A stretch of 51,760 bases of DNA from Gracilaria vermiculophylla (lineage: Eukaryota; Rhodophyta; Florideophyceae; Gracilariales; Gracilariaceae): NCBI GenBank assembly GCA_019155205.2, contig JAHNZQ020000172.1:1853464-1905223 (forward strand), given 5' to 3'. Each line of letters begins with the position of its first letter. The first letter of the stretch is position 1. The notes under the pieces were generated by a model. That model was not told the DNA's origin, searched no databases, and worked only from the letters and a program-made list of their open reading frames with translations. This document shows, piece by piece, positions 1-51,760 of this stretch. Position numbers and translations under genes: made by a program.

Positions 1-401
1 GCCTGCAGGTACGGCCCAAAGTGGTGAATGTAATCCTCCACTGGACACGGCAGACTCACGCGCCTATCATGGAACGGGACGAACACTCGCGTGGCGCGAT
101 GATCGAAGTGCTCACCTGGACGGAACGGTCCTCCTGTTGAGTTGTGATACATCTCCGGATTGGAAGGGGATGTCGGCGCCAGAGTAGGAGAGGACATTCC
201 GAAGGCGTATGCAGCAGGGTGGATAGCGACAGAATGCGTGGTTGCACCTGAGGAGAGAGACCTGACACCACTCGAGGATCGATTTGCTATATGCACCATT
301 GCGGAGGGAGTCGCGTCGAGCTGCCACCGTGGAATCCGAGACGAAGCCGGGCGACTGGCATCGGGCGAGTCATGGCGCACCATCGCGGGGCGCGAGCTCA
401 T
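1..401 (-). CDS. Antisense ORF of family A retrotransposon, N-terminal part, runs off window
   Basis: An ATG at 401 (minus strand) opens a frame of 133 codons without a stop that leaves the window at base 1. The start matches the ATG at 50104 in copy A3: in both, the codons Leu-Asp precede the Met, and the protein begins with a Ser/Pro/Arg-rich segment. Conserved blocks shared with A3 are SGATTHSVAIHPA, PGEHF-H-TRVF and VEDYIHHFGPYLQ. Within 1-120, compared with 49701-49820, there are 16 base differences; 12 fall at third codon positions of this frame and are silent, 4 change a residue. Sense frames over the same bases contain stops. The strand is opposite to gag-pol. I do not recognise the protein; no signal peptide or known catalytic motif is visible. 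Confidence 0.7.
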   Translation of the reverse strand, partial: MSSRPAMVRHDSPDASRPASSRIPRWQLDATPSAMVHIANRSSSGVRSLSSGATTHSVAIHPAAYAFGMSSPTLAPTSPSNPEMYHNSTGGPFRPGEHFDHRATRVFVPFHDRRVSLPCPVEDYIHHFGPYLQ

Positions 402-885
402 ATCCAACGGAGAACGACGGGGGTGCTGACGAGAAACCTATGAGTTCGGCGCCTTCACGGGGATGAGATGAGCGGACGCGATGACGCGGGTGTTGCCAGA
501 AGGAGTAACCTCGGAGGAGTCAGAGTGGCTAACGCCTCCAGGGGGTGGGTACCCTTACGGGACTGGCCCACGCTCCGTCCCCGGAAGCTGCGCGGTGCGC
601 CTGAGGATGCGGAGAACCGCGCTGCCGATTGGCGCAGCGGCACCGAAAGGTGACACCAAGAAGGAGGGGATATCGCCGGGTGAAGAGAAGCTGGAGCCCA
701 CGAACGCCGCAAGGAGTGAAATGCGAACCCGCGGCAACCCGCCGCGAAGGAGTATGGAGAAGAGACGGAACGCCTGGAAGAGAGAACGGGCGAACCGCCG
801 GAGGCCGCACGTGCCGCAACACTGATAGGAGCCAACCCAGGGATCAAGAAAGCCGAGGATACACCTCGAGGACGTGGTGCAATTC

Positions 886-2193: not shown

Positions 2194-2503
2194 TTTTACT
2201 AGAAAGAAGACGGTTTACATATCTTTTTGAAACGATTCTACATAGACTTTGTTCAAAACTTTAGCCTACAATACAGTTTTGGCGCACTTTTCAGGGGTAG
2301 TATGGTTTTGAAACGGACTATACCACATGGCACTCGCCTCTTCGGGCAATATCCAAACAGGACGAAACCGAAACAGTAGTAAAAATATGTCCGCACTGAA
2401 AATGCACTACTTTCAATCCCTGTTTCATTCAAGAACGGCATTGAAGACAACTCGTCGATCTCCAGAAATCTTTTTCTACAATATTATGTCTCTAATTCCA
2501 CAG
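2194..2503. other. Non-coding flank of the Tc1/mariner element
   Basis: AT-rich sequence between the transposase start and the LTR at 2504. It should hold the Tc1 5' untranslated region and terminal inverted repeat, but the other end is lost, so no repeat could be paired. No gene seen. Confidence 0.5.
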
Positions 2504-9949: not shown

Positions 9950-10760
9950 ATTTGGAACAGGGTGGAGTTCCCCTATGCCTGGCGGATTGGGAAAGAGAAG
10001 CATGTCAGATCTTGCTTGTCATGGAACTCCGGGTTCTGCCAACCGTAAAAGTATCCAAAGGCGTTCCGCACTCGGGTCTCATCCGCAAGGTGGGTCTCCC
10101 ATCGTTAGCGGTTAAGCCAATAAAATCCATCGTAAGGGAGATCGAAGGAAAATACCGCAAGGGCACAGCGTCTTCGGCGATGCTTCCGGGCCGCCCCGCT
10201 CGCTGATGTGAGCTTTCCTTGTGCAGGAGTACTTGGAATCGAGACTGAATCTCGCGCTTTTTGGTAAACCTGAGGTAAAGAGTGTTGCAATGCCCCATCG
10301 GGGTCGAAACATTGTCACCGTGCACCGGAGTGTGGAGCCAGTGAGAGGGAAACGCGTCCACCCCTTTCCGCTTCTGGTTCTTTAAAGCAACCTCCAGTAC
10401 GGCGCGAAATCGCAGTGCCTGAAGGAATGATACGAATGGTGAATATGTTCCTCAACGGAGCAAGGGAACCTGGCGCCCTTGTCATGGGAGGGAACAAAGA
10501 CCCGTGTGGCACTATGGTCGAAGTGCTCCCCTGGGCGGAGCAGCGCAACGGCGAAGTTATGATACAGCTCAGTATCGGACGGATAAGTAGGAGCCGGGGC
10601 TGGAAACGTCATTCCGAAGGTGTACGTAGTTGGCCGGATGGAGAATGAATGTGTCAGGGGACCAGAAAATTTGAAAGCGATACCACCAGGGGAGAGGCCC
10701 ACCGTTACATGCCCCTCGGAGAAGCAAATCATGTCAGGACGCTAGCGAGGAAGGCGTGGT
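9950..10760 (-). pseudogene. Antisense ORF remnant of family A copy A1
   Basis: Minus-strand frames at 10732-10382 and 10361-10005, plus a short third frame (10290-10105), are homologous to the antisense ORF of A3. Shared landmarks include RPGEHFDHSATRVFVPSHD, HGDN--TP-GHC, KESSHQRAGRPGSIA and AFGYFYGW. At least two frameshifts and a stop break it. The part matching A3 48014-49270 is missing. It is the most diverged of the three copies, yet the residue pattern is still readable, which argues that the frame was protein-coding when the copies separated. Confidence 0.65.
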
Positions 10761-14423: not shown

Positions 14424-14976
14424 TGTGGTACTGTCAGCTCTCCTGTCGAGGTAGTAAAGCACAACGTCCGTTACGAGTTTTTGTTGACTCCAAAGGCGCG
14501 TATTCCTGAAGGTGGTCTCCGGTATCCGCTGTCGCGAGCCGGGGGAATTCTGAAAGGAGATCCACAAACACCAAGCTGAGGGGGAGGTTCAATGGGCGGA
14601 CAATGCTCCTACAGGCGTTGCTATGATGCGACCTGGGGATCGGCGGCTTAGAAACCTGCGTTGATCGACAAGAGACTCCAACCGGAAAAGTAGATAAAGA
14701 CTCAAGGGTGCTTGTCTTTACTTCCCCAGAGGTGGAGCTCAACCGGCAGATTAAGTATCAAGCCAGGAGCCCGCCTCGGCAGGTCTCGCTACTGTACTAA
14801 TTACCTGGCCAAAATAACTAAAATAAATAATAGTTCTACCGTTTCTCCAGGATACTGTAGCGCACGCGGGCGGAATTATGCACCACGTGGCCCAGCTTAT
14901 AAAATACAAGCCCTCCATAGGAATATTATACCTTACGGCCAAACCACCCTATTTCCGTTGGAGCCACTGTACTACA
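14424..14976 (-). repeat. Family A solo LTR, minus orientation
   Basis: A 553-bp LTR, reverse-oriented: its minus strand starts TGTAGTACAG at 14976 and ends at 14424. It is flanked on both sides by AACGT (14419-14423 and 14977-14981), a perfect 5-bp target duplication. Full LTR length plus the duplication and no internal sequence define a solo LTR made by recombination between the two LTRs of a full element. Confidence 0.95.
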
Positions 14977-14981
14977 AACGT

Positions 14982-16289: not shown

Positions 16290-17039
16290 CTATTCTGATT
16301 TTGTGCTGTCTAACTCGGCCATTTGTAATGCGGTGCGATGGCCAACGGTGTTGAAGTGCCCTTCCAGATTGTACTTGCTAGCCAGCGAGATGTTGCACAA
16401 GGGGCACTTGAACGGGCGTACACGATGGTGAACGCGTCGCACGTGCGACGTCATGTGCTCTCTCTTTCCAAACGACTGGCCGCACTTATCGCAGCGAAAC
16501 GGGCGATGGCGAAGGTGAACGGTATTGGTATGTTTGCTTAGGTCCTTTGAGAAGAAGAAGGAGGAATCGCAATTAGGCAATGGGCACGGAAACGGCCGCA
16601 GGCGCTTGTGCACGCATTGAACGTGTTTGGATCGATCAGTATTGCGTATGAAGGCGCTCTCGCACTGTGTGCAGGGTAAAATAGAGCGCCCTTCGTACAC
16701 TGTTATGTCGTGATCTTTGAGAAGGTGATAGAGGTAGCGAACCTTGCGCGAGAAGACGAGGCTGCACTGGTTACAAATTCGCATTCGACTGTTGGAGCGT
16801 GGATCGTGCACAAGATTACTGGCGGTGATTTGCGATGAGGAGGAATAGTTGGAGCATCCTTTTTCGACGAGGCGGCGGTCAACTGCAGAGGTCTTGAGGG
16901 ATTTAGACACAGGGCACATGTCAGATGAGGCGGAGGAAGATGCAAATGAAGTTGGTTTGCGGTGATTTTGGGGGTTTGCAGGGGGGGGAGTGAGTGACTC
17001 CGGGGAGCACAGAAACTGAAGCTGCATGCGATGTGCCAT
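16290..17039 (-). CDS. C2H2 zinc-finger protein, five fingers
   Basis: A 249-residue protein from an ATG at 17039. The N-terminal 85 residues are Ser/Pro-rich and look disordered. Five C2H2 fingers follow: C89/C92/H105/H110, C123/C126/H139/H144, C152/C157/H170/H175, C183/C186/H199/H204 and C212/C215/H228/H234. Fingers 2-5 are joined by linkers of the HxRxRPFxC type (HKRLRPFPC, HLRHRPFRC, HHRVRPFKC), typical of DNA-binding arrays; finger 1 is set apart by a longer gap. Finger 3 has the wider CX4C spacing. The likely role is a nuclear sequence-specific transcription factor, or possibly a TFIIIA-like protein, though it has too few fingers for a full one. No intron is visible. Upstream the minus strand is pyrimidine-rich. 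Confidence 0.85.
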   Translation of the reverse strand: MAHRMQLQFLCSPESLTPPPANPQNHRKPTSFASSSASSDMCPVSKSLKTSAVDRRLVEKGCSNYSSSSQITASNLVHDPRSNSRMRICNQCSLVFSRKVRYLYHLLKDHDITVYEGRSILPCTQCESAFIRNTDRSKHVQCVHKRLRPFPCPLPNCDSSFFFSKDLSKHTNTVHLRHRPFRCDKCGQSFGKREHMTSHVRRVHHRVRPFKCPLCNISLASKYNLEGHFNTVGHRTALQMAELDSTKSE

Positions 17040-17986
17040 GCTTGCAAAGGGAGAAAGAGAAATGCAGTAGAAGGGGAGAGGCGAAAAGGCGGGACGTGAG
17101 TCGTGCTAATATTTGGGGGACGTACACTGCTGCAAAGGAGTCTATAGATTGTTGTTTCGAGACTAGAGTGAAATAACCAGGCGTCAATCGTCGAGAAGAG
17201 CCTGTAAGTGAAGGAGTGAGCTCTAATGCTGATTTGAGGTCGGAAGATGGAGTCGCGTGTCTTTCTATGTGGCGCGTAGGTCATGAAAGCTCCGCGGTGG
17301 ACTCTCGCGTGAATATGTGAGATCTCCTTATCGATTCTGGTTGAAAATGAGCGGGGTGGCGGTTCTTCTGAGAGCCATGAATGCAATGCTGACAATAATG
17401 AGAGCAAGCGGAGGGGAGGAGGTAGCCTGAACGGGGCGGAGGGACGGGAGCGAGGGCGTAAGTGCGTCGCATCGAGGGCAGTGGACGGTGCTGGCGTTGA
17501 GTGGTCGGGATGGCTCGTCGGCGGCGGTGGGTATGGGGAAGGATGCCAAGGGGAGAGTGCGGCCCGTGGCACCGCGCGATTGTCTGGTAGCAGAGCTGTA
17601 CCACACCAATCCTCCATACTGTAGCGCCAAAAACGCGTTATTTTGCAACGTTGATGACGATTACATCTCCATGTAGGGAAGGAATTCCTGCAGCAGAATA
17701 ACCCAGCGCGCGACTGCGACGTGTCTCTCGAGCTTCTGTAGCGCCATTCGTTGTGCAGTCTGCTTGGCACTTCGTTGCCCGCCCCTTCATCGCGACAGTC
17801 CGCGTCCCAAACGCCCGCTCGGGTCTTTGCAGTCAGACGCGGGCCATGCACACGTGCACACGTTATACTTGGGAACCAGGGATCGCCGTACACTTGGTAA
17901 ACGTGTTCTCGTGGGGTACTGTTGTACACGTACTTCCATTGCATAGATCGTAGCATCATGGCGATGTTTCGCTGTCGCGGTCGCAC
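17040..17986 (-). other. Long open frame upstream of, and overlapping, the zinc-finger gene
   Basis: A minus-strand frame of 427 codons (17986-16703) stays open through the pyrimidine-rich leader and overlaps the first 337 bp of the zinc-finger gene in another frame. The product is dominated by Pro, Ser, Arg and His and has no recognisable domain; that composition follows directly from C/T-rich DNA, which avoids stops. I treat the region as promoter and 5' leader, but a translated upstream or overlapping ORF cannot be excluded. Confidence 0.35.
17619..17745 (-). promoter_or_regulatory. Paired GGCGCTACAG boxes upstream of the zinc-finger gene
   Basis: GGCGCTACAG occurs twice on the minus strand (17745-17736 and 17628-17619), 117 bp apart and about 600-700 bp upstream of the zinc-finger start. 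The nearer copy extends to TTTTTGGCGC, which fits the E2F/DP consensus TTTSGCGC. Function is inferred only. Confidence 0.3.
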
Positions 17987-24898: not shown

Positions 24899-24990
24899 AA
24901 CATCCTGCTCCCCATTGAGCCATTCTTTGCTCAAGCACTTCACCTTGCACAACTACTCTCGCCGGCGTATACTGCTCTCACCATTCAACC

Positions 24991-26169
24991 ATGGATTCTC
25001 AAAGAATGGGCTATGTATTTATTATGGCTTTCCTACTGATCAATGTCGTGAACGCAAATCCGATACAGAGTGAGTACATCATTGAGTTGGATGGCACTTG
25101 CACTCAAAGTTGTCGTGACGCTCTTCAGCTTGCTTTGGATGCCGATTCCGATACAGTTGGGTGCTCGCTTGCATCAACAGGGACAAAGATTGGACCTCTG
25201 TCTTTCGAGTACGTTGAGTGTCCAATCGCATCGAACGTTGCAGAGGCGGTGGTGTCTGGTGTAGTATTTGCCCAAAGCGGTAACGCGCCAGTGCCGACGG
25301 TGCAGCTGGTGTCGCAGGACCAGGAGATGAACACTCAAGCAACACCAACGTCACTTTGGGGGATCGACGAGACGGACGGCGGTGTGAACAGAAACTTGCT
25401 CCTTCAGCCAGTGCGAGATGGCCTTCGTACTTGTAGCATGGGAAGTAACAACGGTGCTGGCGTCAACGTGTGGATTTTTGATACTGGATGTTCTCCTACC
25501 AATGGAGGCCTGTGTGAAGGTTACCACGGGGGGACTAATGTTTGCCAGGATAACAATGGTCATGGAGCACATGTTGCTGGCACCGCCACTGACAATGTGT
25601 TTGGCGTTGCCTTCGAGGCGGCTCGAAGCTGTATCAAAGTACTTAGTGACGGCGGTGGTGGCCGCTTCTCTGACGTCATTAGGGCTCTTGAATACGTCAG
25701 TAACAATCTAAACTTGTTTGGCAATGGTGATGTTGTCAATATGTCTTTGGGCGGTGGCAGACAAGAGTCGGTCAACAGTGCTATCAGAGCCGCACGTGAC
25801 CTCGGCGTCTTCTTTGCTCTTGCAGCGGGCAACGATAACCAAAACGCATGCGATTTTTCTCCTGCATCTGCTGATGGCACCAGCATCTTTACTGTTCAGG
25901 CTCACACGGAAGGATTGAAGAAGGCTTTATTCTCCAACTACGCTACTTTAGCTCGAACCTGTACCACACTCTCAGCCCCTGGCGTGAATATCGAGTCTAT
26001 TGGTGGTTTTAAGTCTGGTACCTCAATGGCTGCGCCACACGTCGCGGGTGCTTGCGCTGTTCTACTTTCAGATAACGAAACGCCAACTAAGGCAAAGCTA
26101 ACCGCAAGAAGTGTTGCAATCAATCCTCTCCTGCGTTTGAAACGCCGTACATTGGGTCTCGATTGCTAG
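24991..26169 (+). CDS. Secreted subtilisin-like serine protease (peptidase family S8, proteinase K type)
   Basis: A 392-residue protein from an ATG 100 bp downstream of a TATA box. Residues 1-24 are a signal peptide (hydrophobic core VFIMAFLLINVV). Residues about 25-115 form a pro-region with four Cys, in the place of an I9-type inhibitor propeptide but not clearly matching it. The catalytic domain starts near QATPTSLWGID, as in proteinase K. The triad is complete: Asp164 in NVWIFDTGC, His191 in NNGHGAHVAGT and Ser345 in SGTSMAAPHVAGA; the oxyanion Asn281 is in ALAAGNDN. It should be an active extracellular endopeptidase. The length is normal for the family, there is no C-terminal extension, and no introns or frameshifts are visible. 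Cys-rich character suggests disulfides. It stands alone, with the nearest supported genes several kb away. Confidence 0.95.
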   Translation: MDSQRMGYVFIMAFLLINVVNANPIQSEYIIELDGTCTQSCRDALQLALDADSDTVGCSLASTGTKIGPLSFEYVECPIASNVAEAVVSGVVFAQSGNAPVPTVQLVSQDQEMNTQATPTSLWGIDETDGGVNRNLLLQPVRDGLRTCSMGSNNGAGVNVWIFDTGCSPTNGGLCEGYHGGTNVCQDNNGHGAHVAGTATDNVFGVAFEAARSCIKVLSDGGGGRFSDVIRALEYVSNNLNLFGNGDVVNMSLGGGRQESVNSAIRAARDLGVFFALAAGNDNQNACDFSPASADGTSIFTVQAHTEGLKKALFSNYATLARTCTTLSAPGVNIESIGGFKSGTSMAAPHVAGACAVLLSDNETPTKAKLTARSVAINPLLRLKRRTLGLDC

Positions 26170-32823: not shown

Positions 32824-34026
32824 CTACGATGTGCATGCCGGCAGCGACAGGGTTACTGGAGGGTCACCGAACACGCAGTACACCTCGTTAATAGAGGTAC
32901 CACCGGAAATGGCATCCGGATCACAAGTCCCACCGCACTCTGTGCTACACACTGAGTTGGTTCCAAGCTTAAGTGAATCCTTCACGCAGCCAGACGAGTC
33001 GGGGCAGCATTTGCCCCTACCGCCCTGACCACCCAACGATGCAAAGAAGGCATCACAGAACGCTTGCTTTGCCTGCCCACAATCGCCTTGCGGAATGCAT
33101 TCACCATTTATGCAGTTCTCGCCGGAGGGGCAGTCATCGTCCATGGTACACCCTGGAGGCTTAGGCGGCGTGCACACATCATCGTTATCCCCCGCACCTT
33201 CTGTGCAGGTATCCTCCGGATCGCACTGTTGCTCGCACGCGCCCAAGCCGTCCATTTGCGGCACGCATTTCTCGCCGCAAGTTGTGCATACATCACGTTG
33301 CGGGCTGGTGGAGTCAAAAACGCAGGATGCGGATGAACCACTCTCTTCGCACTTATCGCATTCGTCGCAGTTCTCGATCAATGTCTCTTTGCACATGCCA
33401 GACTGACAGCTGAGTTGCACCGCCGTCGTTGTATCCTTGCATTCTTCACCGGAGCAAAGCGGGTCACTGTCCACAGGTTGACAGCTGCGTGCAGCAGATG
33501 AGCATGCCTGACAGATGGGGCAGTCAACTGTTACCGGCACGTCCTCGTAGAAGCACCATCGCCTCGTGGTGCAGCTGTCTGAGCCGCCAAAAGCGGTCTC
33601 CTCATCACCGCCGCAGTCCAAAACAGCGTGTGCAAACAAACGGAAGGTGTCGGCGCAACAATTGTCAATATCAAACGAGCCGATGGGGCAGCGAATAGTC
33701 TTTGAACTCCCATATGCGGACATTTTACACGGGAATCGGCCGGGAACTGGAGTCGTCGAACTGCCCAAAGTAGTTGGTATCGAAACCAAGTTCACATGTA
33801 CGGTGTCGATGAGCTTACATCCACTTGCTGCGTTGTACGTTACCGTGAGGTACCCGTTATCCAAAACGGCTGTCGCCGTTCCGCCAAAGTTATCCCTGCC
33901 GTATGTAAGATCAAAGCTGGTAGAGAACGAAAGATCCAAGTTTGCACAGGATCCGGAACCTGTCACAGATGATGCGAGCCTGCCGAGAAGAAGAACGAGA
34001 AGTACCGCGTTCAAGCTACGAATCAT
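32824..34026 (-). CDS. Secreted cysteine-rich protein, 400 residues
   Basis: The open frame begins at 34128, but a TATA box at 34139-34131 would place transcription start near 34108, downstream of that ATG. The true start is therefore the Met at 34026, which gives a clean signal peptide (MIRSLNAVLLVLLLGRLASS). The mature protein has an N-terminal domain of about 150 residues with few Cys (beta-rich in appearance), then dense Cys repeats: 42 Cys in 400 residues in all. Segments such as CDECDKCEES, CTTCGEKC and CTMDDDCPSGENCINGEC resemble EGF/Dickkopf-like extracellular modules. It is probably an extracellular-matrix or cell-wall protein stabilised by disulfides; the exact family is not recognised. 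No introns. Confidence 0.85.
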   Translation of the reverse strand: MIRSLNAVLLVLLLGRLASSVTGSGSCANLDLSFSTSFDLTYGRDNFGGTATAVLDNGYLTVTYNAASGCKLIDTVHVNLVSIPTTLGSSTTPVPGRFPCKMSAYGSSKTIRCPIGSFDIDNCCADTFRLFAHAVLDCGGDEETAFGGSDSCTTRRWCFYEDVPVTVDCPICQACSSAARSCQPVDSDPLCSGEECKDTTTAVQLSCQSGMCKETLIENCDECDKCEESGSSASCVFDSTSPQRDVCTTCGEKCVPQMDGLGACEQQCDPEDTCTEGAGDNDDVCTPPKPPGCTMDDDCPSGENCINGECIPQGDCGQAKQAFCDAFFASLGGQGGRGKCCPDSSGCVKDSLKLGTNSVCSTECGGTCDPDAISGGTSINEVYCVFGDPPVTLSLPACTS

Positions 34027-34130
34027 TGTGATGTACTGCACGGAAACTGATGATCGGTGTCTCAGGATAATGGAGAGCAGTGTCTGATGCTTGTGGCGTA
34101 TCTTCGTCGAACACTGAGACTCGATCACGC

Positions 34131-34139
34131 CTTTTTATA
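34131..34139 (-). promoter_or_regulatory. TATA box of the cysteine-rich gene
   Basis: TATAAAAAG on the minus strand, 3 bp upstream of the first ATG of the open frame and about 105 bp upstream of the ATG at 34026. The second distance matches the protease gene (100 bp), supporting the downstream start. Confidence 0.7.
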
Positions 34140-40261: not shown

Positions 40262-41750
40262 AAATTCGAAGACCTCGTCGATGTCTCATACTCATGAAGC
40301 AAGTCTTTGCAGTTCTTCAGTTCGCCTCTGGTCATCCATACAGATTCCAAAACAGGGTCGTCTGCAAACTGTACCAAGTAGTATACGCGACGGTTCTTCC
40401 GCTTCTTATCGAGAATCGCAAACACTTCATGCTCTACAGTTCCATCTGCGTCCATAACTATTGACAATGGCCCCTTGCATCCAAGCGGTTTCTTGTACTT
40501 GCGTAGTTTCGAAACATGAAAAACGTTGTGAGCATTTTTCATCGAAGGTGAAAGCTCGACGCGGTAAGTCATCGGTCCCATGACTGAAGTTGTTTTAAAT
40601 GGACCAAGATATTTTGTTCCCCACTTTGCAGGTAAATCAGCTCTGCTGAACGCACTCAAGTCTTCGCTTCGCAAGAAAACCAATCCCCTTCTTTAAATGT
40701 GATCTCTTTTTGCTTGAGATTTGTATAATGTTGCTGCCTTGCCTGCGCGACAGCTAAATTTTCCCGTGCTAAAACACGAAAGGCATTTCTCTTATCTACC
40801 AACTTCGCTGCGCTTTGACATTTAACACCACATGCTTCGATTATTCTTGTCTCTAGGTTGTGTGGGATCCTTCTCAGATCAACTTCGAACGGTGTTAGTC
40901 CCGTGCTCGCATTTTTTGAAGAGTTGTACTCAAACTCCATTGTGGAAAGTATCTCATGCCAGCTTTCCTTTTCTTCTTGGATGGTCTTTCGGATCATGTT
41001 ACGCAAAACTTTGATCATCACTTCAGATTGTCTGTCCGTCTGAGGGTGATCGCTAGTAGATAAGTTGAGTTTGACGTTTAAAAGGTGAACCAAGATTTTC
41101 CAGAAGTTTGACTTAAACTTCGGGTCTCGATCGGATATCATCTTGACAGGTATTCCGTGCTTGCTGAATACCTCGTCGTGCAGCAATTAAGCGGCTCTAG
41201 CAGCTGTCACTTCCTTCGTCGTAGGAAAAAATATCGCCCGCTTCGAAAGTTTCTCAACTATGACGAACACAGAGTCACATCTAGCACTACAACGTGGTAG
41301 TTCAGTCAAAACGTCCATGGTTATGACATCCCATATCTCTGCTGGTATCTCATGAGACTGCAGCTTCCCTTGAGGTCCTGTGTTTGGAAACTTGTTCACT
41401 TGACGATCATGACATGCGGATCAGAACTTTTCCGTATCGTTGTACATGCCAGGCCAATAGATATGTTCCGCCATCCTTGCGTACATTTTTTCAGTTCCAA
41501 GTGAGCGGGGACATGGAATTGCTCAATCATGTCAATACGCAGTATCTGATTGTCGGGAACATACAGTCTAGTACTGCCAGTACCCTTCCACAGTAGGTAT
41601 TCGTCTTTGAGTTCAATGTTCGACTCTTGATGCGTAACTCTGTTGTTCTTATCAACTTGTTTGTACGGAAAATGAATCCTCTGCTTAGGAAAATCGTCGT
41701 ATTCATAGCCTGTCTTGATGTGTTGCAGCAATTCGTCGTTCATCACCTCG
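40249..41750 (-). pseudogene. Family B integrase with C-terminal chromodomain
   Basis: The N-terminal zinc-binding region is at about 41750-41400 (QFHVPAHLELKKC; SACHDRQVNK after a frameshift). Core residues are WDVITMDVLTELP (first Asp), KMISDRDPKFKSNFW (second Asp) and RQSEVMIKVLRNMIR (catalytic Glu), so all three acidic residues survive. Stops at about 41396 and 41187 and a frameshift near 40660 break the gene. After the conserved FKEGDW and a GPFKTTSVMGPMTYRVELSP motif comes the chromodomain (40430-40260): VEHEVFAILDKKRKNRRVYY then LVQF and WMTRGELKNCKDLLHEYE, the aromatic-rich fold that directs chromoviruses to modified histone H3. The frame ends at the polypurine tract. Confidence 0.88.
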
Positions 41751-41754
41751 ATTC

Positions 41755-42420
41755 ATTGCAAAGCAGCCTGTTGATCCGGTCTCCTGCTTAGGGCGTCAGG
41801 AACGATGTGTTTTTTACCTGGTACGTGTTCGGTTCCATACGTGGATGACTGCAAGACGTCAAGCCATCGAGCTTGTCGGCCGGAGAGTCGGGCCTTTGTC
41901 TGCAAGTACCTGATTGGTTCGTGGTCTGTCTTAAAAGTAAACTTCCTTCCCTACAAGTAAATGACCCATTCGCGAAGTGCGATCATGAAAGCCAGTAATT
42001 CTCGATCGCCTGTGTCCCAGTTTTTTTCCGCTGTGGACAGTCTGTGTGAGAGGTATGCGATTGGTCGGGCGTCCTGTTCAAGCGTAGCACCAACGGCGTA
42101 CTTCGATGCGTCAGTAGATAATACAAATTCCTTCTCTGACGATGGGTGAGCCAATACGGGTGCGGATGTGAGGGCAGTATTCAGTTTGTCAAACGCCTTC
42201 TGTTATTCATACCCCCTTTCAAACTGTTTTCCTCGAACGATGTCGCTCACTGGCCGCCGTATCCTGATATAGTCCTTAATAAACTTTCTGTAGTAATTTG
42301 CCAAGCCAATAAACTGCTGCACCTCTCGTACGGATACAGATGTGGGCCATTTTAGTATTGCATTCCTCAAACGATCCTGCATGGCAATGCAGTCTGCTGA
42401 TACAGTATAGCGAAGGAAGT
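41755..42420 (-). pseudogene. Family B RNase H
   Basis: After a connection segment (QFIGLANYYRKFIKDYIR) the RNase H motifs are clear: LSTDASKYAVGATLEQ (first Asp), GDRELLAFMIALREW (Glu) and FKTDHEPIRYLQ (Asp), ending with HIVPDALSRRPDQQ. A TAG at 41951-41953 stands where a Gln codon would be (CAG to TAG), and a TGA near 41755 precedes the integrase. All catalytic acidic residues are still present. Confidence 0.85.
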
Positions 42421-42424
42421 CGAC

Positions 42425-43210
42425 TTAGATAACTCCAGTAACACACTTTGAGTGCTTCGCGTACCGTCTGTTTGATCCAAGAATTTCAAAAAGCCGCCTC
42501 AGGTGCTTTTCATGTTCCTCCTTTGACCTACTGTAGACCAACACGTCATCCACAAACAAGACCATACAATCTCCGTTTAAGTCTCGCAGTAGTGTGGAAA
42601 ATAGTCTCGAGAAACGTGCTGGAGCGTTCATCAATCCAAATCAAAGAGCCCCCCATTCAAATGATCCATACCGGGTTCGAATCGCTGTCTCCGGTATGTC
42701 CTCTTCTCTGATCCGCACCTGATGATAGGCCCCCAATAGGTCTATCTTAGAAAAGATCGTTGCTTCACAAAAGTGATCAATCGCTTCAGAAATCAGTGGT
42801 ATTGGGTTTGAGTCTGGTATGGTTATCTTGTTTAACGCCCGGTAGTCACAAACCATTCAAAGGTCACCCCCCTTCATCTTCACAAAAAATACTGGGGCTC
42901 CATACGGCGAGCTAGACGGGCGGATGAGTCCTTTAGATAGAAACACCTGCAACTGTCGCTTGAGTTCCAATAACTCATCTTGAAAAAGTCGGATCACTGG
43001 CCTTACGGGAGGGGCGTGGTCCTTCTTCAAGTTGATCTTAAAGTCAATGCCACGCTTTGGTGGCAGAGTGTCTGGTAGTTCATCCAGAAAAACGTCCTGG
43101 AATTCAGTCTCCAAGTCTGAAACGTCAGGGGACACAGTCATACTGTTCTTTCTGGGCTGAATCCTGACTGCAAATAGCTCTGCCTTCCGTTTCCGCAAGA
43201 GCTTTTTCAT
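42425..43210 (-). pseudogene. Family B reverse transcriptase
   Basis: One frame, interrupted by two TGA codons at 42857 and 42641. Both stand where CGA (Arg) is expected in gypsy RT: before MVCDYRALNKITI and before FGLMNAPARFSRLF. Active-site residues are intact (IFSKIDLLGAYHQVRI; FVDDVLVYSR). The region upstream, PPKRGIDFKINLKKDHAPPV, is the usual protease-RT connection. RT ends near 42425 with a TAA. Without the nonsense changes it would be a normal chromovirus RT. Confidence 0.9.
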
Positions 43211-43322
43211 TGTCTTGATCGAAATCTTTTTGAACGTGATCGCGTTCCTGCTTGGTCTTGCATTCTCAGAGTGCAGAATATTCGTTGAATCATCAGCTTT
43301 CTTGATTCAGACGCAACCTGTG

Positions 43323-43874
43323 TGTAGTACAGTGGCACCTACGGAAATAGGGTGGTTTGGCCTTAACGTATAATATTCCTAAGGAGGGTTCGTAATTTAT
43401 TAGCTTGGCCACGTGGTGCATAATCTCGCCCGCGTGCGCTGCAGTATCCTTGAGGTACAGTAGAATTATTATTTAATTTAGATAATTTATGAAGGTAATT
43501 AGCACAGTAGCGAGACCTGCCGAGGCGGGCTCCCGGCTTGATATTTAACCTGCCAGTTGCGCTCCACCTCTGGGCAAGTAAAGCGAAGCACCATTGAGTC
43601 TTCTTCCAATTTTCCGGTTGGAGTCTCTTGTCCATCTACGCAGGTTTCTAAGCCGCCGATCCCCAGGTCGCATCATAGCAGCGCCTGTAGGAGCATTGTC
43701 CGCCCAGTTAACCTCCCCCTCCGCTTGGTGTTTGCGGATCCCTTTCGGAATTCCCCCGGCTCGCGACAGCGGATACCGGAGACCACCTTTAGGAATACGC
43801 GTCTTTGGAGTCAACAAAAACTCCTATCCGACATTGTGCTTTACTACCTCGAGAGAAGGGCTGACAGTACCACA
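43323..43874 (+). repeat. Family A solo LTR inside family B pol
   Basis: 552 bp, TGTAGTACAG to GTACCACA, plus orientation, flanked by CTGTG on both sides (43318-43322 and 43875-43879). It interrupts the protease-RT region of B1 right after the Trp of HNPDIDW. So family A was still active after B1 inserted here. Confidence 0.95.
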
Positions 43875-43879
43875 CTGTG

Positions 43880-44274
43880 CGCCAGTCAATATCCGGGTTG
43901 TGTGTCCGCAACCATTTCCTTCCCATAACAAACTTTATGTCCCCCTTTATTGGTAAAACATAAATTTCTTCCGTGCTTGTGACGTTTGCAAAATTCAGTA
44001 TGGCCATTGTCTTCCGCTGCGCTGTGGTCATTGATTCGTTGCCGAACTCAACGTCATTTTCCACGCGCATCATCGTAAGATCAAGTCGTTTAGCCACATT
44101 TGGATCTATAAAACAGTGAGTTGCGCCTGGTTCGAGGTCTCGGATTACTCTCTGTGCATTCACGGTGCATTCATAAAACATGTTGCACTCGTCCGTGGCT
44201 GTATTCAGTGGTGCCAGCCTTAATGACACTTCGGGAGATATGTCATCTTCATTCGCCGTCTCGAGGGACGGCAC
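43880..44274 (-). pseudogene. Family B retropepsin-like protease, cut by solo LTR
   Basis: A minus-strand frame with the shape of a retrotransposon aspartic protease: a short strand, then DLEPGATHCFIDPNVAKRLD where family members have DSGATHSFI, then VLPIKGDIKFVMGRKWLRTH, the usual end of the domain (I-G-WL). The catalytic Asp is replaced by Glu (LEPGA instead of IDSGA), so the enzyme would be inactive even without the LTR insertion at 43874. Confidence 0.75.
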
Positions 44275-45413
44275 TACTCGTTTGAGGAATCGTGAGCGTC
44301 GGTTGTCTTTCCATTTCCAGAGTCATCAGTACACGTGTGGGACGGCGTGTACTTCCCACCGCAATCGTAGCAGCGTGCGTTCTTGCGATACAAACTCCTC
44401 TCCCCATCCTCGGCCGATCCCCAATACAGTGCATCATTTTCTCGGTTCTTTGTCTTGGTTTTAGTCGCACCCTCCTTCTTGTTTTCTCGTTTCTGGGCTG
44501 GTTCACGATCCTTATTGGTCTTGCTGGAGCGGTCCGTACCACGTTTTGTGGATTTGCTGTTCCATTGCATGGCTATTTCCAGCGTTCTTGTGTGCTCATA
44601 CACGTCATGCAAGCTCTCAGGCTCTCCGGTGGGGTACTTCTTCGCGAATTTTTCTTTGATCTCATCAGTCCATCCATTAAAGAAAAACAAATATGCTTCC
44701 GATGAAGATGTACGACAGATCTCCACCGAGTCGCGAAACGTCGATACATACCAATCGACTGATTTCCTCAGTCTGTGCTTTATGAGCCTTGGCTTAGCTC
44801 TAGCCTTCTCATCAGCTTGCATAAATTCCTTGAAAAAGCTTCTTGTAAGTCTGACACGGTCTTCGGCTTACGATCGTTTGCTTCTAAGTTCATCATCCAT
44901 GTCGCAGCCCGGTCTCTTAGGTAACAGTCTGCAAGGTCCAGAATGCTGGAATCTGTCATCTTTCCCAGCTTTCCCACCTTCTTCACGTTGTAGATGAAAG
45001 CTCTCACTTTGGTCGAGTTTTGTTCATTGCGGGATCCCGTGATAGAACGGATTGGCGGGTATCTTCGTTGAAGCGCTTGGTGGGGTGTTCATCGCAGTAC
45101 CTAGCTAATGAATCTCAGCTGAAGCGGCTCCTTAAACCGCATTTCGAGCTGGCGGAACTTCACTGGTGAGCTGTGCAATCTGGGCCTGTTGTGCTTCGAT
45201 CAGCCCATGCATGCTCTGCAACAGTTATTGCATTGTTTGTATCCTGGCAGCTGTTTCAATGGATATGCCCTGATCGATTTCCTGGACATTCTCCGGTACT
45301 GGGGATGTGTTCATCGGCATCTCCGGCAGTGCGAAACTTTGCGAAGGTCGTAATGCAATCCTTGCAGCCGAATGTGTCCTCGGCCTCGGTATCTGCGACG
45401 GTCTGTCCGGCAT
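44275..45413 (-). pseudogene. Family B gag
   Basis: A start is likely at the ATG at 45413, 15 bp beyond the primer binding site. The N-terminal part is Pro/Arg-rich. The capsid is recognisable at 45007-44780 (LDLADCYLRDRAATWMMNLE; TVSDLQEAFSRN) and, after a frameshift near 44820, at 44822-44500 (DWYVSTFRDSVEICRT; FFFNGWTDEIKEKFAKKYP). A Lys-rich stretch leads to a Cys/His cluster CYDCGGKYTPSHTC, a changed zinc knuckle (CX2C then H-C). Two or more frameshifts break the gene. Confidence 0.8.
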
Positions 45414-45447: not shown

Positions 45448-45701
45448 TGGAACAGAGTGTCGATCGGTTCTCTATCCTCCTCTGTGGGTCGAGTGGTTCG
45501 TCTTTTACTCCCCCCAATGTCCAGGTCCCCGTCCCTCCTCTTGCCGGCTGCAGAGCAGCGACAGCCTTAAATACTAGAGAATGTTCTAATTGCTAACTAC
45601 TTACTGCTACGATTTAATTGAAACGATGTCCATAAATGGCGGTCACCTGTCATTATGTGCATTGGGTCAAGTCATCAGGGTTTGCGAGGTACAGTGTTAC
45701 A
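45448..45701 (-). repeat. Family B LTR shared by tandem copies B1 and B2
   Basis: 254 bp, the 5' LTR of B1 and 3' LTR of B2. It is similar over its whole length to 39992-40247. Confidence 0.88.
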
Positions 45702-46092
45702 CTCACCCTTTTCTTAAATTCGACGTCCTCGTTGACGTCCTCGTCGATGTCTCATACTCATGAAGCAAGTCTTGGCAGTTCTTCAGTTCGCCTCTGGTCA
45801 TCCATACAGCTTCCGAAACAGGGTCGTGTGCAAACTGTACCAAGTAGTATACGCGACGGTTCTCCCGCTTCTTGTCGAGAATCGCAAACACTTCCTGCTC
45901 TACAGTTTCATCTGCGTTGATATGTACTGACAATTGCCCCTTGCGTCCAAGCGGTTTCTTGTACTTGCGTAGTTTCGAAACATGAAAACGTTGTGAGCAT
46001 TTTTCATCGAAGATGGAAGCGCGTCGCGGTGAGTCACCGGTCCCATGACTGAGGATATTTTACGTGGACCAGGATACTTAGTTCCTCACTTC
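45702..46092 (-). pseudogene. Family B copy B2: integrase tail and chromodomain remnant
   Basis: The minus frame 45933-45703 gives ETVEQEVFAILDKKRENRRV, then YYLVQFAHDP and the closing DLLHEYE helix, parallel to the B1 chromodomain with a small in-frame addition (TRTSTRTS) near the end. Upstream sequence to 46092 matches the B1 integrase tail with frameshifts, then breaks at an LTR junction. All other B2 coding sequence is deleted. Confidence 0.8.
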
Positions 46093-46273
46093 AAAGCTCC
46101 ACGTCCCCCCTCTTGCCGACTGCAGAGCAGCGACAGCCGTAAATACCAAAGAAGGTTCTAATTCCTAACTACTTACCGTCACGATTTAATTGACACGATG
46201 TCCACAATTGGCGGTCACCTGTCATTATGTGCCTTGGGTCAAGGCATCAGGGTTTGCGAGGTACTGTGTTACA
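46093..46273 (-). repeat. Family B LTR, truncated (5' LTR of B2)
   Basis: The minus strand starts TGTAACACAG at 46273 and aligns to other family B LTRs for about 180 bp; the last ~75 bp is lost in the deletion that joins it to the integrase tail. Confidence 0.8.
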
Positions 46274-47790
46274 ATAGCGGACTCCTTGAGGTAATGGCTC
46301 TTGTTGAGGAGGAGAAGGACGTTCTCCTCACTACTGTAGCAGAGTTGCTGAAGGAACAGAGTACAGATGCGTACTGCAAGGAGTGCCTCGCCACTGTGGG
46401 GAGTTTGATATCGTCATTCGACGTTGATTGAGACGGCGTGCTTGTACGCCGCGCCTCCCTGGATGGAGCTCTCCAAAAGGTGATCCCGAGAAAGCTACAG
46501 GCGAGAGTTTTGTATCTCTCGTACTATCCTGGCCTCTTCGGGCACCCCGATGGATCTCGGATGTATTTCACGATGCAGAGGGAGTTCTATTGCCCGGAAA
46601 TGGCTAAGGACGCCTTCCAAACAGTCCCCAAGACGGAGCGAGGGCACCGATTTATCCTCGTGATCACGGATCGTTTTTCCAAGATCACGCGTGCCATCCC
46701 CCTCCCGAACACCACTGCAGCAGTAATTGCCGACTCCTTTCTGGAGCATTAGGTTTACCCCTACGGGATAACGTTGTACCTCCTTACGGACAATGGCCTC
46801 CAGTTTGCGGCGAAGCTCTTCAGCTCCATCTTCGGAATGCTGGGGACGAAACAGTTGTTTACGACTGCCTATCACCACCAGACAAACGGACAGGCGCAAA
46901 ACTTCAACAAGAGCATCGTCTCGAGTCTGAATCACTACATCTCGGACCACCAGAAGGATTGGGACGCATATGTGGGCCCCCTCATGTTTGCATATATCCT
47001 GCAGGCGCATTGCTCCACGGGGACCACTCCTCTCAATCCGGTGCTCTCGCGCATCCCGCCAAGTGCCGACATTGCGGCACGCGCCACGGCGCACCCGGCG
47101 GATGGGCCACAGGCGCCAACAGCGGCGCAAGCCAAACGCTCCATCCTAAGGAGATATGAGAACGCCTTCTCCCTCGCAAAAAAGAGACCCCACGCATCGC
47201 AGAAAAGATACAAGCAGGACTTCGACCGGAAGGTGATAGGAGGCCCTCACCTGAAGGAAGGCGACGAGGTTTTCTTCGACAAACCCGGGGAAAAATCCAC
47301 CGAACCCCCGGACGTCACGTGCAAGTTAGCGCCGACCACTTCAGGGCCCTACAAAGTCCTGGCCATCTATAGGGATACTGTCGCCATTGAGGTGAGCGGG
47401 CTCAGAGACGTCATATCCCGCGATAGGGTGACGAAAGTCCCGACGCCCCATCTCTCAGTAATGCCCGCCGTACCACCTCAGGGACAACGCACGGAGATTT
47501 CTCATCCTACCTTCTCAGGCGCGACGACACCACAGGATACTGGGAATCGCATCACCGCTCTAGGTGAACCAAGACTGCAGGCTCCCGATGCCATCCTGAC
47601 CCCAGAAGGTGACATCCTCTCCGCGGTGGACCATATCGTGTCCCATCCACGAAACCCTGCAGTAATACTATACCATGTCCGCTGGTATGGGTACACCTAG
47701 AAGGGAGACACGGAAGAACCTCCGGAACATATCCCGGAGAACGTCCTTAGGCGATACCACGCCAGTCTGGTGCGGAAACGCCTCTCCACA
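46274..47790 (+). pseudogene. Family A integrase with chromodomain (A3 copy)
   Basis: The frame opens with EVMALVEEEKDVLLTTVAEL and the zinc-binding start (LSYYPGLFGHPDG). An in-frame deletion of about 120 bp near 46620, relative to A1, removes the CxxC part and the first catalytic Asp. Then follow VITDRFSKITRAIP, a TAG where A1 has Trp (FLEHW, TGG to TAG), LLTDNGLQFAAK (second Asp) and QTNGQAQNFNKS, where the catalytic Glu is Gln. From 46774 the frame is open for 308 codons and ends in a chromodomain (VDHIVSHPRNPAVILYHVRW; a TAG at 47698 interrupts; EGDTEE-PPEHIPENVLRRY follows). Integration activity is impossible. Confidence 0.88.
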
Positions 47791-47835
47791 TAGGCGCTTC
47801 CGTTTAGGAAAGGGGGAGGGAACCCCCAACCGGAG

Positions 47836-48069
47836 ATGTTTTTCGTCTCCGCAGTCTATCGCCTCCAGGATGCCATTGCTCACTTTTCGCATGCTCCCGT
47901 GGCTGCACTTCGTGTCACTGAGCACGCGGGCACTACCTGGGTCATATTGGAACTACCGTTCATGGAGCTTCTGCTCCATTCGAAGGGTCTTTTATTCGCA
48001 ACGGCTCTATTACCTACAGGTCACCGAATCTCGTTGAATACTCCGTTTCGAGGCGCACTTTCGTTGTGA
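47836..48069 (+). other. Sense-strand open frame after the chromodomain
   Basis: A 77-codon plus-strand frame (MFFVSAVYRLQDAIAHFSHA...) in phase with none of the recognised domains. It overlaps the 3' end of the antisense ORF by about 55 bp, tail to tail. It may be the end of Pol or chance. Confidence 0.3.
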
Positions 48070-50104
48070 GCGCTTGGCTATCGAAGAACGCTGATAGGCT
48101 TTCTCTAATGACCGCCATCGAGACTCGGTCTGTCCGGGCCTTGTGAAGCTCTGCCACCAAAGCACGCGCCCTGCGCAGAGCCTCTACAGGGGAACCCAAA
48201 GCAGGACGGCCTGTCACCAGGCAAGCCTGCACCAGGTCCTGGAAGGCTGCCTCCAGAACCCCAGAGGAGACTCATCCCGACGTTGCACCCGATGCCGCCA
48301 CCTCCGTTGACGGCACAACAACCGCCACGGAAGGAGCCACGGACGGCGGACCAGCTGGGACAGGGGCTCTCCGACGGGATTCCATAGGCTCGGCAGTGGA
48401 GGTGGGCAAAGCCAGGGACGGAGTCGGTGACACCGGAGGTGACGGCGGTGCGGGGACTGGAACGCTCCGTTGGCGAAGCCGAAGAAGAGGCGCAGAGACG
48501 CTTCGCAATCGGAGTTACACCACTGAGGCCTAAGGTACCGGGACGGGAGCAATCTCGTCGTATTCCATGGGAGACATGGCGGCTACCACTGCCGGAGCAC
48601 TCGGCACAGCGGATGGCCGTAGAGTTATGACCTCAGGAGGTGCGCCCATTTCCTGGAACGGAGCCGGTAACCGATGGGGGGCATCATGTGCCAGGCTCTC
48701 CATCAAGGGGTCGTAGTCGAGTACTCGGGGCCGTGGCACCTGAGGAACCCAAGAAGGCGCCGGACGGGGAAAGAAAGGGTATGCTCGCCCGTCATCGTCC
48801 CCATTTGGACTCTTCACAATGGCGTGGAAGTTTTTCTCGCCGTAGTCGTACCAGAGGAAACCCAGCGTGTCACCTAACGCCACCTGAAGGTTGTAATCCA
48901 ACAGCGTCTCCGCCTCGGCCTCACTCCGTGCGGTGGCCTAAACCAAGTTTTGAATGCCAAAGGAGTGCAGGACCCGTATGATGGACGCCGACACGCGCAG
49001 CAAATGCCCGGCGGTCGGCTGATACGACGAGTCCCTGTAAAGGCGGCCGTCGCGGCATCGAGTATAGGAGGTTACGCCTTCGTACGCCGTTTGGAGATAC
49101 GCCATCAGGGTGCCAACTGCGATCTCCGTAGAGGAGACCAACATGACAAACCGCCCTAAAGAGTCCTGGGCATCCAAGACCTCGGATGTGTGATACGCGA
49201 AGATCATGGGCGTCACCACGCAGAGGTGCGGGGATACCCAGTGGTTCCTCCAGGAGTCGTTCACCTTTAAGTACTACTCGGGACGCTGCCCGGAAGGCAT
49301 GTCATGGAAATCTATGTTATGCCAACCATAGAAGTACCCAAAAGCGGTGCGTACTCGAGTCTCGCCTGCGAGGTGCGTCCCCCATTGACTCCGATTGAGC
49401 CAGTAGAGGCGATCGTATGGGGGATCGAAGGGCAACACCGCGAGGGCAGAGCGCCCATCGGCAATGCTTCCGGGTCGCCCCGCTTTCTGGTGCGAGCTCT
49501 CCCTGTGGAGCAGTACCTGGAGTCGCGCCTGGACCTCTTGTTCCTCAACGCACCTCAAGTGTGGAGTATCGCAATGTCCCACCGGGGTTGGAGCGTTGTC
49601 ACCGTGCAGCGGAGTAGGAAACCAGTGAGAGCGATATGCATCCACGTGGTTCCGGTACTGGTCATTCCACCCAACCTCCGGTACGGCGCGGAAGCGCATC
49701 GCCTGAAGGTATGGGCCGAAGTGGTGAATGTAATCCTCCACGGGACACGGGAGACTCACGCGCCTATCGTGGAACAGGAAAAAGACCCGCGTGGTGCGAT
49801 GATTGAAATGCTCTCCTGGACAAAACAGTGCACCGGTCGAGGTGTGATACTTCTCAGGATTCGAAGGAGACGTACGCGGAGGAGTAGGAGATGACATGCC
49901 GAAGATGTAGGAAGCTGGATGGATGGCAACCGAATGCGTGGTAGCACCTGAGGAGAGAGATTTGACACTGCTTGGAGAATGGCCCGCGGATATATGCCCC
50001 ACCGAGGAGGGAGCCGCGTCAAGACGCCATCGTAGGATTCGAGGAGAAGCCGGGCGACCGGAGTCAGGCAAGGTATGGAGAACCATAGCAAGGCGCGCGT
50101 TCAT
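48014..50104 (-). pseudogene. Long antisense ORF of family A chromovirus, about 697 codons, four internal stops
   Basis: A single minus-strand frame runs from the ATG at 50104 to a TAG at 48014. It is broken only by TAG at 49274, 48938 and 48530 and TGA at 48272; the frame is the same on both sides of each stop, so no frameshift occurred. The N-terminal third has SGATTHSVAIHPA, CPGEHFNHRTTRVFF, CPVEDYIHHFGPYLQAMRF and FGYFYGWHNIDFHD; the middle has HWVSPHLCVVTPMIFAYHTS and LGFLWYDYGEKNFHAIVKSP; then a Pro/Ala/Val-rich linker, and a helical C-terminus (LVAELHKARTDRVSMAVIRE). It does not look like Gag, Pol or Env. Retrotransposons with extra antisense genes are known in some plant Ty3/Gypsy lineages; identity with those is untested. 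Expression would need a promoter at the 3' LTR firing inward. Confidence 0.7.
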
Positions 50105-50616
50105 ATCCAACGAAGAACGACGGTGATGCGGACGAAAGGATTATGAGTCTTGCTTCTTCTCGGAGATTGGATGAGCGGACGCAAGGGAGCAGGTGTTTCC
50201 AAAAGAAGAAGCCTCGAAGGAATTGGAGTGGCGAGTGCCTCCAGGGGGTCGGTATCCCCTCGAGACTGACATACGCTGCGTCCACGGAAGTTGCGCGTTT
50301 GCACCGCGCACAGCACGCCGGAAGACGCGGACACTCGCGCCGCTGACTAACGCAGCAGTACCAACGGTTGAAACCAAGAAGGAGGAGGTGCAGCTGGGTT
50401 AAGGGGGAGAAGGGCCCACAAACGCCGCAAGGAATGAAACGCGAGCCCGCGGCAATACGCCGCGCAGGAGTATGAAGGAAGGGAGGAACGACTGAAGCGG
50501 AGAACGTGCCAATCGCCGGAGGCCGAATTGGCCTCAACACCGACAGGAGCCTCCCTGGGGATCAAGGAATAGAAAGATGCACCTTGAAGACGTGGTGCAA
50601 TTTAGGAAATGCGGTA
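50105..50616. other. A3 region between antisense ORF start and LTR
   Basis: Matches 402-898 of A0. Minus-strand frames at 50540-50064 and 50565-50347 share stretches with A0 frames 847-455 and 822-529 but shift phase between copies, so this is more likely the antisense leader than a gene. Confidence 0.45.
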
Positions 50617-51131
50617 TATAGTACAGGGGCTCCTAAGGAAGTATGGTGGTGTGGCTTTATGGTATAATATTCCTAAGGAGGCCTCGTATTTTATTAGCGC
50701 GGCCACGGGGTGCATAATTCCGCCCACGTGCGCTACAGTATCCTTAAGGGACGGTAGAATTATTATCATTTTTATTTAATTTATGCAGTTAATTGGTACA
50801 GTAGTGAGACCTGCCAAGGCGGGCTCCCGGCTTGGTATTTATCCTGCAGGTTGAGTTCCACCTCTGGGGAAGTAAAGGTAAGCACCCTTGAGCCTTCATC
50901 TACTTCTCCCGTTGGAGTCTCTTGTCGACCAACTCAGGTTTCTAAGCCGCCGATCCCCAGGTCGCATCATAGCAGCGCCTATAGGAGCATTGTCCCCCCA
51001 GTGAACCTCCCCCTCCGCTTCGTGTTTTGCGGATCCCCTTTCAGAATTCCCTTGGCTCGCGGCAGCGGACACCGGAGACCACCTTTAGGAACACGCACCT
51101 TTGGAGTCAACATAAACCCCTAACGGACGTT
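50617..51131 (+). repeat. Family A 3' LTR of A3, 3'-truncated
   Basis: Starts TATAGTACAG (first TG mutated to TA) and follows the family consensus to GGACGTT at 51131; the last about 40 bp is missing and replaced by unrelated sequence. Confidence 0.85.
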
Positions 51132-51760
51132 TTGCCTGTTTGAAAAACAGATGAGCTTTCTGCGCTATACTCTCTTGTGACACAGGGTGCACAGTTAACC
51201 ATTTGAACTATCAACACGCCCCTCGCCCTGTACTTCCTTACAGAACAAGACCTCAAGCTTACAGTAACCTTTTTTGACCACTGCTGTACACATGTACAAT
51301 TTCTCAGGCTCCGGTCACTTCTGGGAATTGAACCCAGGGTCCTAGCATTTATCTGGGCCCATAAACTTATGAATTTCAGCGGATCAAAGGGAGAATTGAG
51401 TGGATGCAAAGGACGTTCGCCAGCTCTGGCTTGGATTTACTTGGAGGTGCCTCGAGGCCATCTTATATAGTGTTAAACGTGCACCAGCTCGATCAGAGTG
51501 TAACCTACACTATAGTTCAGGGACAATCAATACTACAAATCATATTAAACCAGTACATAAATGTGCTACCCACAATGTTACCCACAATTCAATATGGCTG
51601 ACAACAACAATGCACAACAAGGCACAAGTGATGTACAGAAAGGCGTATCCGTTATGTAAACTCACGAGAGCATGACTGTGCACAAATTCACGGATCCTGG
51701 GTGTCACCGTAATCCGGTTCCATACACAAGCAGCTATATGTGTCAGGAACAGCAATGCGC
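51132..51760. other. Unassigned sequence at the window end
   Basis: No supported gene. Frames at 51400-51675 have no motif. It contains a tRNA T-arm-like motif at 51321-51337 and a TATATAG at about 51465. Confidence 0.4.
51321..51337 (-). promoter_or_regulatory. tRNA T-arm / pol III B-box-like motif
   Basis: The minus strand reads CTGGG TTCAATT CCCAG: a perfect 5-bp stem around a canonical T-loop, which fits the B-box consensus GGTTCRANNCC. No complete cloverleaf and only a weak A-box were found upstream, so it may be a relic of a tRNA or of a tRNA-derived SINE. Confidence 0.4.

What the first reader, a model, noticed from the sequence alone, without database searches (positions are those of the whole stretch)
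48014..50104. A ~700-codon antisense gene in a Ty3/Gypsy chromovirus
Downstream of integrase and chromodomain, family A carries a frame on the opposite strand that is open for 697 codons with only four in-frame stops and no frameshift in A3. It is not gag, pol or env by any motif I can see. It converges tail-to-tail with pol. A large antisense gene in a non-plant chromovirus would be unusual. The protein has clear conserved blocks (PGEHF-H-TRVF, VEDYIHHFGPYLQ, FGYFYGW).
Basis: partly seen in the sequence, partly recalled or inferred. Interest (0 to 1): 0.88.

Follow-up and report, generated by a model that had tools for sequence, protein, structure and literature searches.

The report
Antisense accessory gene in algal retrotransposon
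A retrovirus-like jumping element that multiplied in an alga's genome carries, on its opposite strand, a large extra protein gene that natural selection preserved while the element was spreading; backward genes of this sort are known from plant and fungal elements, but what they do is not known.

Summary
Window 48014-50140 (-) is a decayed copy (five internal stops, not four; no indels against an open copy) of a 708-codon antisense gene between the pol stop (47793) and 3' LTR (~50580) of a chromodomain Ty3/Gypsy element in an alga, a red alga by gene content. Copies with the whole frame open exist. In 29 copies dN/dS is 0.37 in this frame and 1.06-1.44 in four of five others. Shared variants have N/S ratio 0.25, private ones 1.18; pol 0.12 and 0.81. 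A diverged copy (A2) gives 0.17. No stop is shared by more than 5 copies. The product has a strongly constrained core (codons 82-455), a Pro/Ala-rich linker and a short tail. Searches of Pfam, PDB and a protein database found no relative; pol found 5,850 in the same database. Many loci carry a form with the core deleted, so the core seems dispensable in cis. Antisense genes at this place are known in plant Retand/Grande/RIRE2 and fungal Boty elements: a new variant of a known kind.

The parts
46237..47793 (+). 3' part of pol of the host element (A3): integrase and chromodomain, decayed; stop codon at 47791-47793
   Evidence: tblastn 72% identity to residues 399-956 of the open pol stretch of L028; that stretch has RT, RNase H, integrase zinc-binding, rve and Chromo (E 6e-7) Pfam hits
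48014..50140 (-). antisense gene, 708 sense codons in open copies plus stop; here with five internal stops; likely start ATG at 50102-50104 (codon 13)
48776..49897 (-). core (family codons 82-455), strongest constraint
   Evidence: N/S ratio 0.117 for shared and 1.561 for private variants, 29 copies
48191..48775 (-). Pro/Ala/Val/Ser-rich linker (codons 456-650), weak constraint
48017..48190 (-). C-terminal tail (codons 651-708), charged, perhaps helical (inference)
   Evidence: shared N/S ratio 0.171, from only 10 synonymous and 5 nonsynonymous sites
49898..50104 (-). basic, Ser/Pro/Arg-rich N-terminal tail (codons 13-81), weak constraint; start codon not settled (ATG at codons 13, 19, 82)
   Evidence: shared N/S ratio 0.472 for codons 1-81; pI 11.7 in L011; ATG counts
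47794..48013 (.). 220-nt gap between the two convergent stops
50141..50579 (.). leader between 3' LTR and antisense frame; no coding signal in any frame; least conserved part of the 3' half
   Evidence: pooled dN/dS 0.76-0.89 in all six frames of a 495-nt upstream stretch, 20 copies; identity about 0.82
50580..51171 (+). 3' LTR of A3; the far end and the TG...CA borders are inferred from other copies
   Evidence: blastn to the L019 LTR, 86% over 50580-51135; LTR pairs
10018..10711 (-). diverged second copy of the antisense core (element A2; pol 54-57% identical)
   Evidence: tblastn 49-78% identity; dN/dS 0.170 in frame against the 29 copies over 645 aligned bases, 1.40 and 1.94 in the two other same-strand frames
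3..434 (-). third copy, N-terminal part, cut by the window edge (A1)
   Evidence: tblastn 73-76%; dN/dS 0.342 in frame, 1.25 and 1.35 in the two other same-strand frames

Best explanation
This is an accessory protein gene of an algal chromodomain Ty3/Gypsy element, read from the strand opposite to gag-pol and convergent with it. Shown: it behaves as a protein-coding frame, it was under purifying selection while the family was active, and it sits at a fixed place in this element. Inferred: an antisense promoter in or just inside the 3' LTR makes an mRNA; its protein (basic tail, large core, flexible linker, short C-terminal tail) acts in trans at the nuclear or expression stage of the element's cycle, for example on transcription, RNA export or host silencing. 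Copies without the core can then be carried along by complete ones. Coding and selection: about 0.95. Trans-acting accessory role: about 0.45. The exact activity is open.
For: Coding: dN/dS 0.369 in frame against 1.06-1.44 in four other frames; the fifth (0.44) mirrors the same third positions but has a median of 20 stops per copy. Shared against private variants: 86 N to 126 S against 454 N to 139 S, Fisher p 9e-21. The core is as constrained as pol: 0.117 in both. A2, at dS about 1.2, has dN/dS 0.17. Of 53 stop positions in 29 copies 42 are private and none is shared by more than 5; other frames have 14-26 positions shared by more than 5. Linkage: 51 of 131 scored pol hits have a scored core hit downstream on the other strand, 41 of those 51 at 1,500-1,599 nt. 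Trans or dispensable: 40 of 41 matches to a core-deletion junction span it, at 74-100% identity to L045.
Against: No transcript, protein or structure. No relative found outside this genome, so function rests on analogy. Dispensability of the core in cis fits a neutral passenger or a self-limiting factor as well. 80 of 131 pol hits had no scored core hit, though lists are capped. Codon usage does not single out this frame. The AlphaFold model is useless (mean pLDDT 32.5). Private N/S in the core is 1.56, above 1, probably because many synonymous sites are already taken by shared variants; the counting method is rough.
Confidence: 0.62

Rival explanations
1. The antisense protein limits its own element (copy-number control): a repressor or decoy. 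Copies that lost the core escaped control and spread.
For: Many loci carry a form that lacks the most constrained part: the common junction loses codons ~66-466, two other junctions lose ~109/122-495.
Against: Full copies are also numerous (40 scored of 335 candidates at one full junction, lowest identity 89%), and long-term purifying selection on a self-repressor needs selection between element lineages. Core-deleted and full copies are mixed in a poorly supported tree.
Confidence: 0.22
2. A passenger: a captured cellular or viral gene kept for a benefit to the host or for its own sake, without a role in transposition.
For: No relative found; not found near the other, distant pol in this window; capture is discussed for plant cases (PMC7264820 passages).
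Against: Kept in at least two subfamilies with pol about 55% identical, under strong constraint. Free-standing copies were not looked for beyond capped lists.
Confidence: 0.13
3. Only the antisense RNA matters (dsRNA, silencing control); the frame is a by-product.
For: Antisense transcripts are discussed as siRNA sources for such elements (PMC7264820 passages).
Against: Selection acts on codons in one frame. An RNA role may come in addition.
Confidence: 0.03
4. A chance open frame on the back of GC-rich sequence.
For: GC-rich region; 49 of 2,000 simulations reach 278 codons.
Against: 0 of 2,000 reach 700, and the selection tests above.
Confidence: 0.01

Closest known systems
Antisense ORFs of plant Retand/Grande/RIRE2 elements (Ty3/Gypsy; TRP28 = Transposase_28, PF04195, in Retand)
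   Same: Gene between pol and 3' LTR, opposite to gag-pol, conserved in the family, function unknown; Grande's product is nuclear (PMC11963269 and PMC7264820 passages)
   Different: Retand is a non-chromovirus lineage of flowering plants. No TRP28 hit here in 10 members scanned. The host here is an alga and the element has a chromodomain.
brtn of Boty, Botrytis cinerea
   Same: Additional antisense gene in a fungal LTR element; seen only in PMC7264820 section 5 and, as a cited title and passages, in PMC8365987
   Different: Other kingdom; no sequence at hand for comparison. That Boty belongs to a chromovirus clade is recalled, not tested.
Antisense genes of HTLV (HBZ) and relatives
   Same: Antisense accessory protein gene of an LTR element (PMC11963269 passages)
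   Different: No sequence relation tested; a comparison of layout only.
Chromodomain Gypsy elements of the red algae Chondrus crispus and Agarophyton chilense
   Same: Named relatives of this pol at about 50% identity (P0036, P0026)
   Different: Whether they carry an antisense gene could not be examined; no relative of this protein was found in the same database.

Membership tests
Antisense accessory ORF between pol and 3' LTR (aORF-3R, defined by position) | long ORF between pol and 3' LTR, antisense to gag-pol | tested here: met
Antisense accessory ORF between pol and 3' LTR (aORF-3R, defined by position) | sequence conservation comparable to other element proteins | tested here: met
   core constrained like pol
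Antisense accessory ORF between pol and 3' LTR (aORF-3R, defined by position) | present in most copies of the family | tested here: inconclusive
   51 of 131 pol hits have a scored core hit, 25 more a hit of a later stretch; lists are capped and a core-deleted form is common
Antisense accessory ORF between pol and 3' LTR (aORF-3R, defined by position) | transcribed from its own antisense promoter | not testable with these tools
   no RNA data
Retand lineage / TRP28 protein | PF04195 domain in the antisense product | tested here: not met
   no such hit at E up to 10 in 10 members
Retand lineage / TRP28 protein | non-chromovirus, flowering-plant element | tested here: not met
   Chromo domain in pol; host with phycobilisome linkers and LHC proteins
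Chromovirus-type Ty3/Gypsy | protease, RT, RNase H, integrase in Gypsy order with C-terminal chromodomain | tested here: met
   RT, RNase H, integrase and Chromo above their cut-offs; protease hit below its cut-off
Chromovirus-type Ty3/Gypsy | RT phylogeny inside the chromovirus clade | not tested
   no RT tree built. Chromodomains were gained by other Gypsy lineages too (PMC5348765 abstract; PMC12477816 passages), so the domain alone does not settle it
brtn of Boty | sequence homology to brtn | not testable with these tools
   no brtn sequence at hand

The most novel reading that the evidence does not exclude
A new family of trans-acting accessory proteins, encoded antisense in red-algal chromodomain elements, on which core-deleted elements depend as parasites: a two-tier system within one LTR family, arisen independently of the plant antisense proteins. 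The commonest core-deleted form may even be the trace of a spliced antisense mRNA, since its junction can be placed as GT...AG on the antisense strand.
Probability: 0.35. Interest if true: 0.72.

Novelty: new variant of a known kind. Interest (0 to 1): 0.6.

Why it matters
Antisense accessory genes of LTR elements have no established function in the papers seen here. This is a case in an alga with codon-level evidence of selection, mapped to one domain, and with natural elements that lack that domain. Comparing the two kinds in one genome makes the question of what the protein does for the element testable.

Tried and rejected
Protein homology: the search for homologous proteins with one open copy (no hit at 1e-3, 7,992 candidates scored) and with 10 natural members (no hit at 10, 7,994 scored). 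The first look needs shared exact words, so distant relatives can be missed. Control with pol of the same element: 5,850 of 7,978 scored candidates at E up to 1e-3. PDB by sequence: best E 1.2 and 0.54, taken as chance. Viral contigs: 22 pattern matches, none a relative. Pfam: only weak hits below cut-offs or none.

AlphaFold on window-only sequences gave mean pLDDT 32.5; no fold search was run on it.

Codon usage did not separate the frame from others (correlation with pol 0.82 in frame, 0.80-0.81 in three others): no evidence either way.

Origin of the core deletion, left open. All five loci with the common junction lost exactly 1,208 nt between two copies of an 11-nt repeat, GCACCTGAGGA, as in a copying jump. 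On the sense strand no placement gives GT...AG; on the antisense strand one placement does, so antisense splicing is not excluded; chance is not excluded either. 1,208 is not a multiple of three. The two other junctions (1,121 and 1,163 nt) were not tested for splice-like ends by script. That the core is a late insertion was rejected, because diverged A2 has it.

An upstream second exon was rejected: no frame of the stretch between LTR and gene shows coding constraint.

Bias to state: the 20 loci were picked partly for long open frames, so stop counts per copy are low-biased. In the whole list, by my count, 33 of 139 hits have no stop in the matched stretch. Of 36 copies aligned, 7 with under 1,800 aligned bases were dropped before the tests; of 18 pol copies aligned, 2 with 1,500 or fewer were dropped. 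The shared/private test uses two-letter sites only: private means one copy, shared three or more; sites with exactly two were left out. The genome search lists hold only the best candidates.

Full report
Where it is. The window is C3:1853464-1905223 of a 44.8 Mb genome in 27 contigs. The genome encodes phycobilisome linkers (11 matches) and LHC-type proteins (10 matches), which together point to a red alga (inference; the species is not known to me). The element around the finding (A3) is 5'-truncated: pol from residue 399 on lies at 46237-47790, the antisense gene at 48014-50140, the 3' LTR from 50580.

The element. Open stretches of natural copies give RT, RNase H, integrase zinc-binding, integrase core and Chromo domains above their Pfam cut-offs (L028), and weak protease and gag hits below theirs (L019, L016). 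LTRs are about 590 bp. Of 20 loci, 3 showed a repeat between their two ends: L028 94.9% over 216 bp, L016 94.8% over 97 bp, L026 76.0% over 601 bp. The first two suggest insertions that are not recent; the third pair may not belong to one insertion.

The frame. Stop to stop it has 708 codons and is open in natural copies L011 and L012. The window copy aligns to L011 without a gap at 84% identity and has five internal stops. 139 places in the genome match the first 278 residues of the window copy (scored of 628 candidates), and 150 match a later stretch (scored of 501).

Is it coding? Of 36 copies aligned, the 29 covering at least 1,800 of 2,127 nt were used; median pairwise identity 0.86. dN 0.105, dS 0.292, median ratio 0.369 in this frame; 1.058, 1.158, 1.443 and 1.382 in four other frames; 0.439 in the sense frame that shares third positions, which however has a median of 20 stops per copy. 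Variants private to one copy have N/S ratio 1.18, shared ones (three or more copies) 0.247; the same test on pol, 16 copies, gives 0.805 and 0.117. Fisher p is 9e-21 for the antisense gene and 9e-22 for pol. The reading is that selection held while the lineage was copying itself and ended with each insertion. Copies are not independent and may recombine, so the p-values are nominal; 50 subsamples of 20 of the 29 copies gave 0.18-0.24.

Depth. The A2 copy in the same window, whose pol is 54-57% identical to this family's, gives dN 0.21 and dS 1.23 in frame (ratio 0.17) over 645 aligned bases, and ratios of 1.40 and 1.94 in the two other same-strand frames. dS is near saturation, so 0.17 is rough. 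The gene is thus older than the split of the two subfamilies.

Architecture. By 50-codon windows and regions: codons 1-81 weak (shared N/S 0.472), 82-455 strong (0.117), 456-708 weaker (0.475), with the last 58 codons at 0.171 on few sites. In L011 the N-terminal tail is basic (pI 11.7) and the linker 19% Pro and 17% Ala. ATG occurs at codon 13 in 28, codon 19 in 26 and codon 82 in 25 of 29 copies, so the start is not settled.

Core-deleted elements. 51 of 131 scored pol hits have a scored core hit downstream on the other strand, 25 only the later stretch, 55 neither. I fetched 8 of the 55. One (L047) is masked beyond its first 790 bases; the other 7 lack the core by deletion, though L051 has a core piece elsewhere. 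Five share one junction with exactly 1,208 nt lost, in an 11-nt repeat; two have others, of 1,121 and 1,163 nt. A search with the common junction gave 41 matches from 40 scored of 355 candidates, 40 of them spanning it, at 74-100% identity. In the shared C-terminal part core-deleted (8) and full (29) copies have like ratios, 0.60 and 0.58, and mix in a tree with low support, so one or several origins cannot be told. The common junction can be placed as GT...AG on the antisense strand and not on the sense strand: a spliced antisense RNA is possible as its source, a copying jump in the repeat is the plainer reading. That these elements used proteins of complete elements is inference.

What it is not. 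No relative was found in Pfam, PDB, viral contigs or the protein database, against 5,850 relatives for pol in that database. It includes named red-algal proteins (P0026, P0036), so coverage of red algae is not nil, but it may be thin.

Known kin. [quoted passage not shown] PMC8365987 passages name brtn of Boty. My ten searches showed no paper on such a gene in red algae among the listed titles and abstract starts, in an open-access library only; I did not open most of them. This case agrees in position and orientation and differs in host, chromodomain and protein.

Noticed in passing
L045, L046, L048-L052: Elements of the same family with the antisense core deleted; the common 1,208-nt deletion lies in an 11-nt repeat and can be placed as GT...AG on the antisense strand.
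   Followed up: partly
window 40683-42847 (-): A second, distant LTR element whose pol is 26-32% identical to family A's; no match to the antisense gene near it. Repeated pieces of it lie at 45503-46311.
   Followed up: no
window 43789-44867 (-): Gag/protease-like frames of another element running into LTR-like sequence; weak protease hits.
   Followed up: no
window 2555-3056, 3277-3827, 14424-14979 (-), 43320-43874: Further LTR copies of family A or relatives, some perhaps solo LTRs.
   Followed up: no
window 1370-2214 (-): Frames that look like a broken Tc1/mariner transposase by eye (recalled motif, not searched; frames).
   Followed up: no
window 24919-26166 (+), 16293-17105 (-), 32827-34134 (-): Long intronless host-like frames: by eye a secreted subtilisin-like protein, a C2H2 zinc-finger protein and a Cys-rich secreted protein.
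   Followed up: no
whole family, 3' half: Indels are very rare although copies differ by about 14%, also in non-coding parts; unexplained.
   Followed up: no
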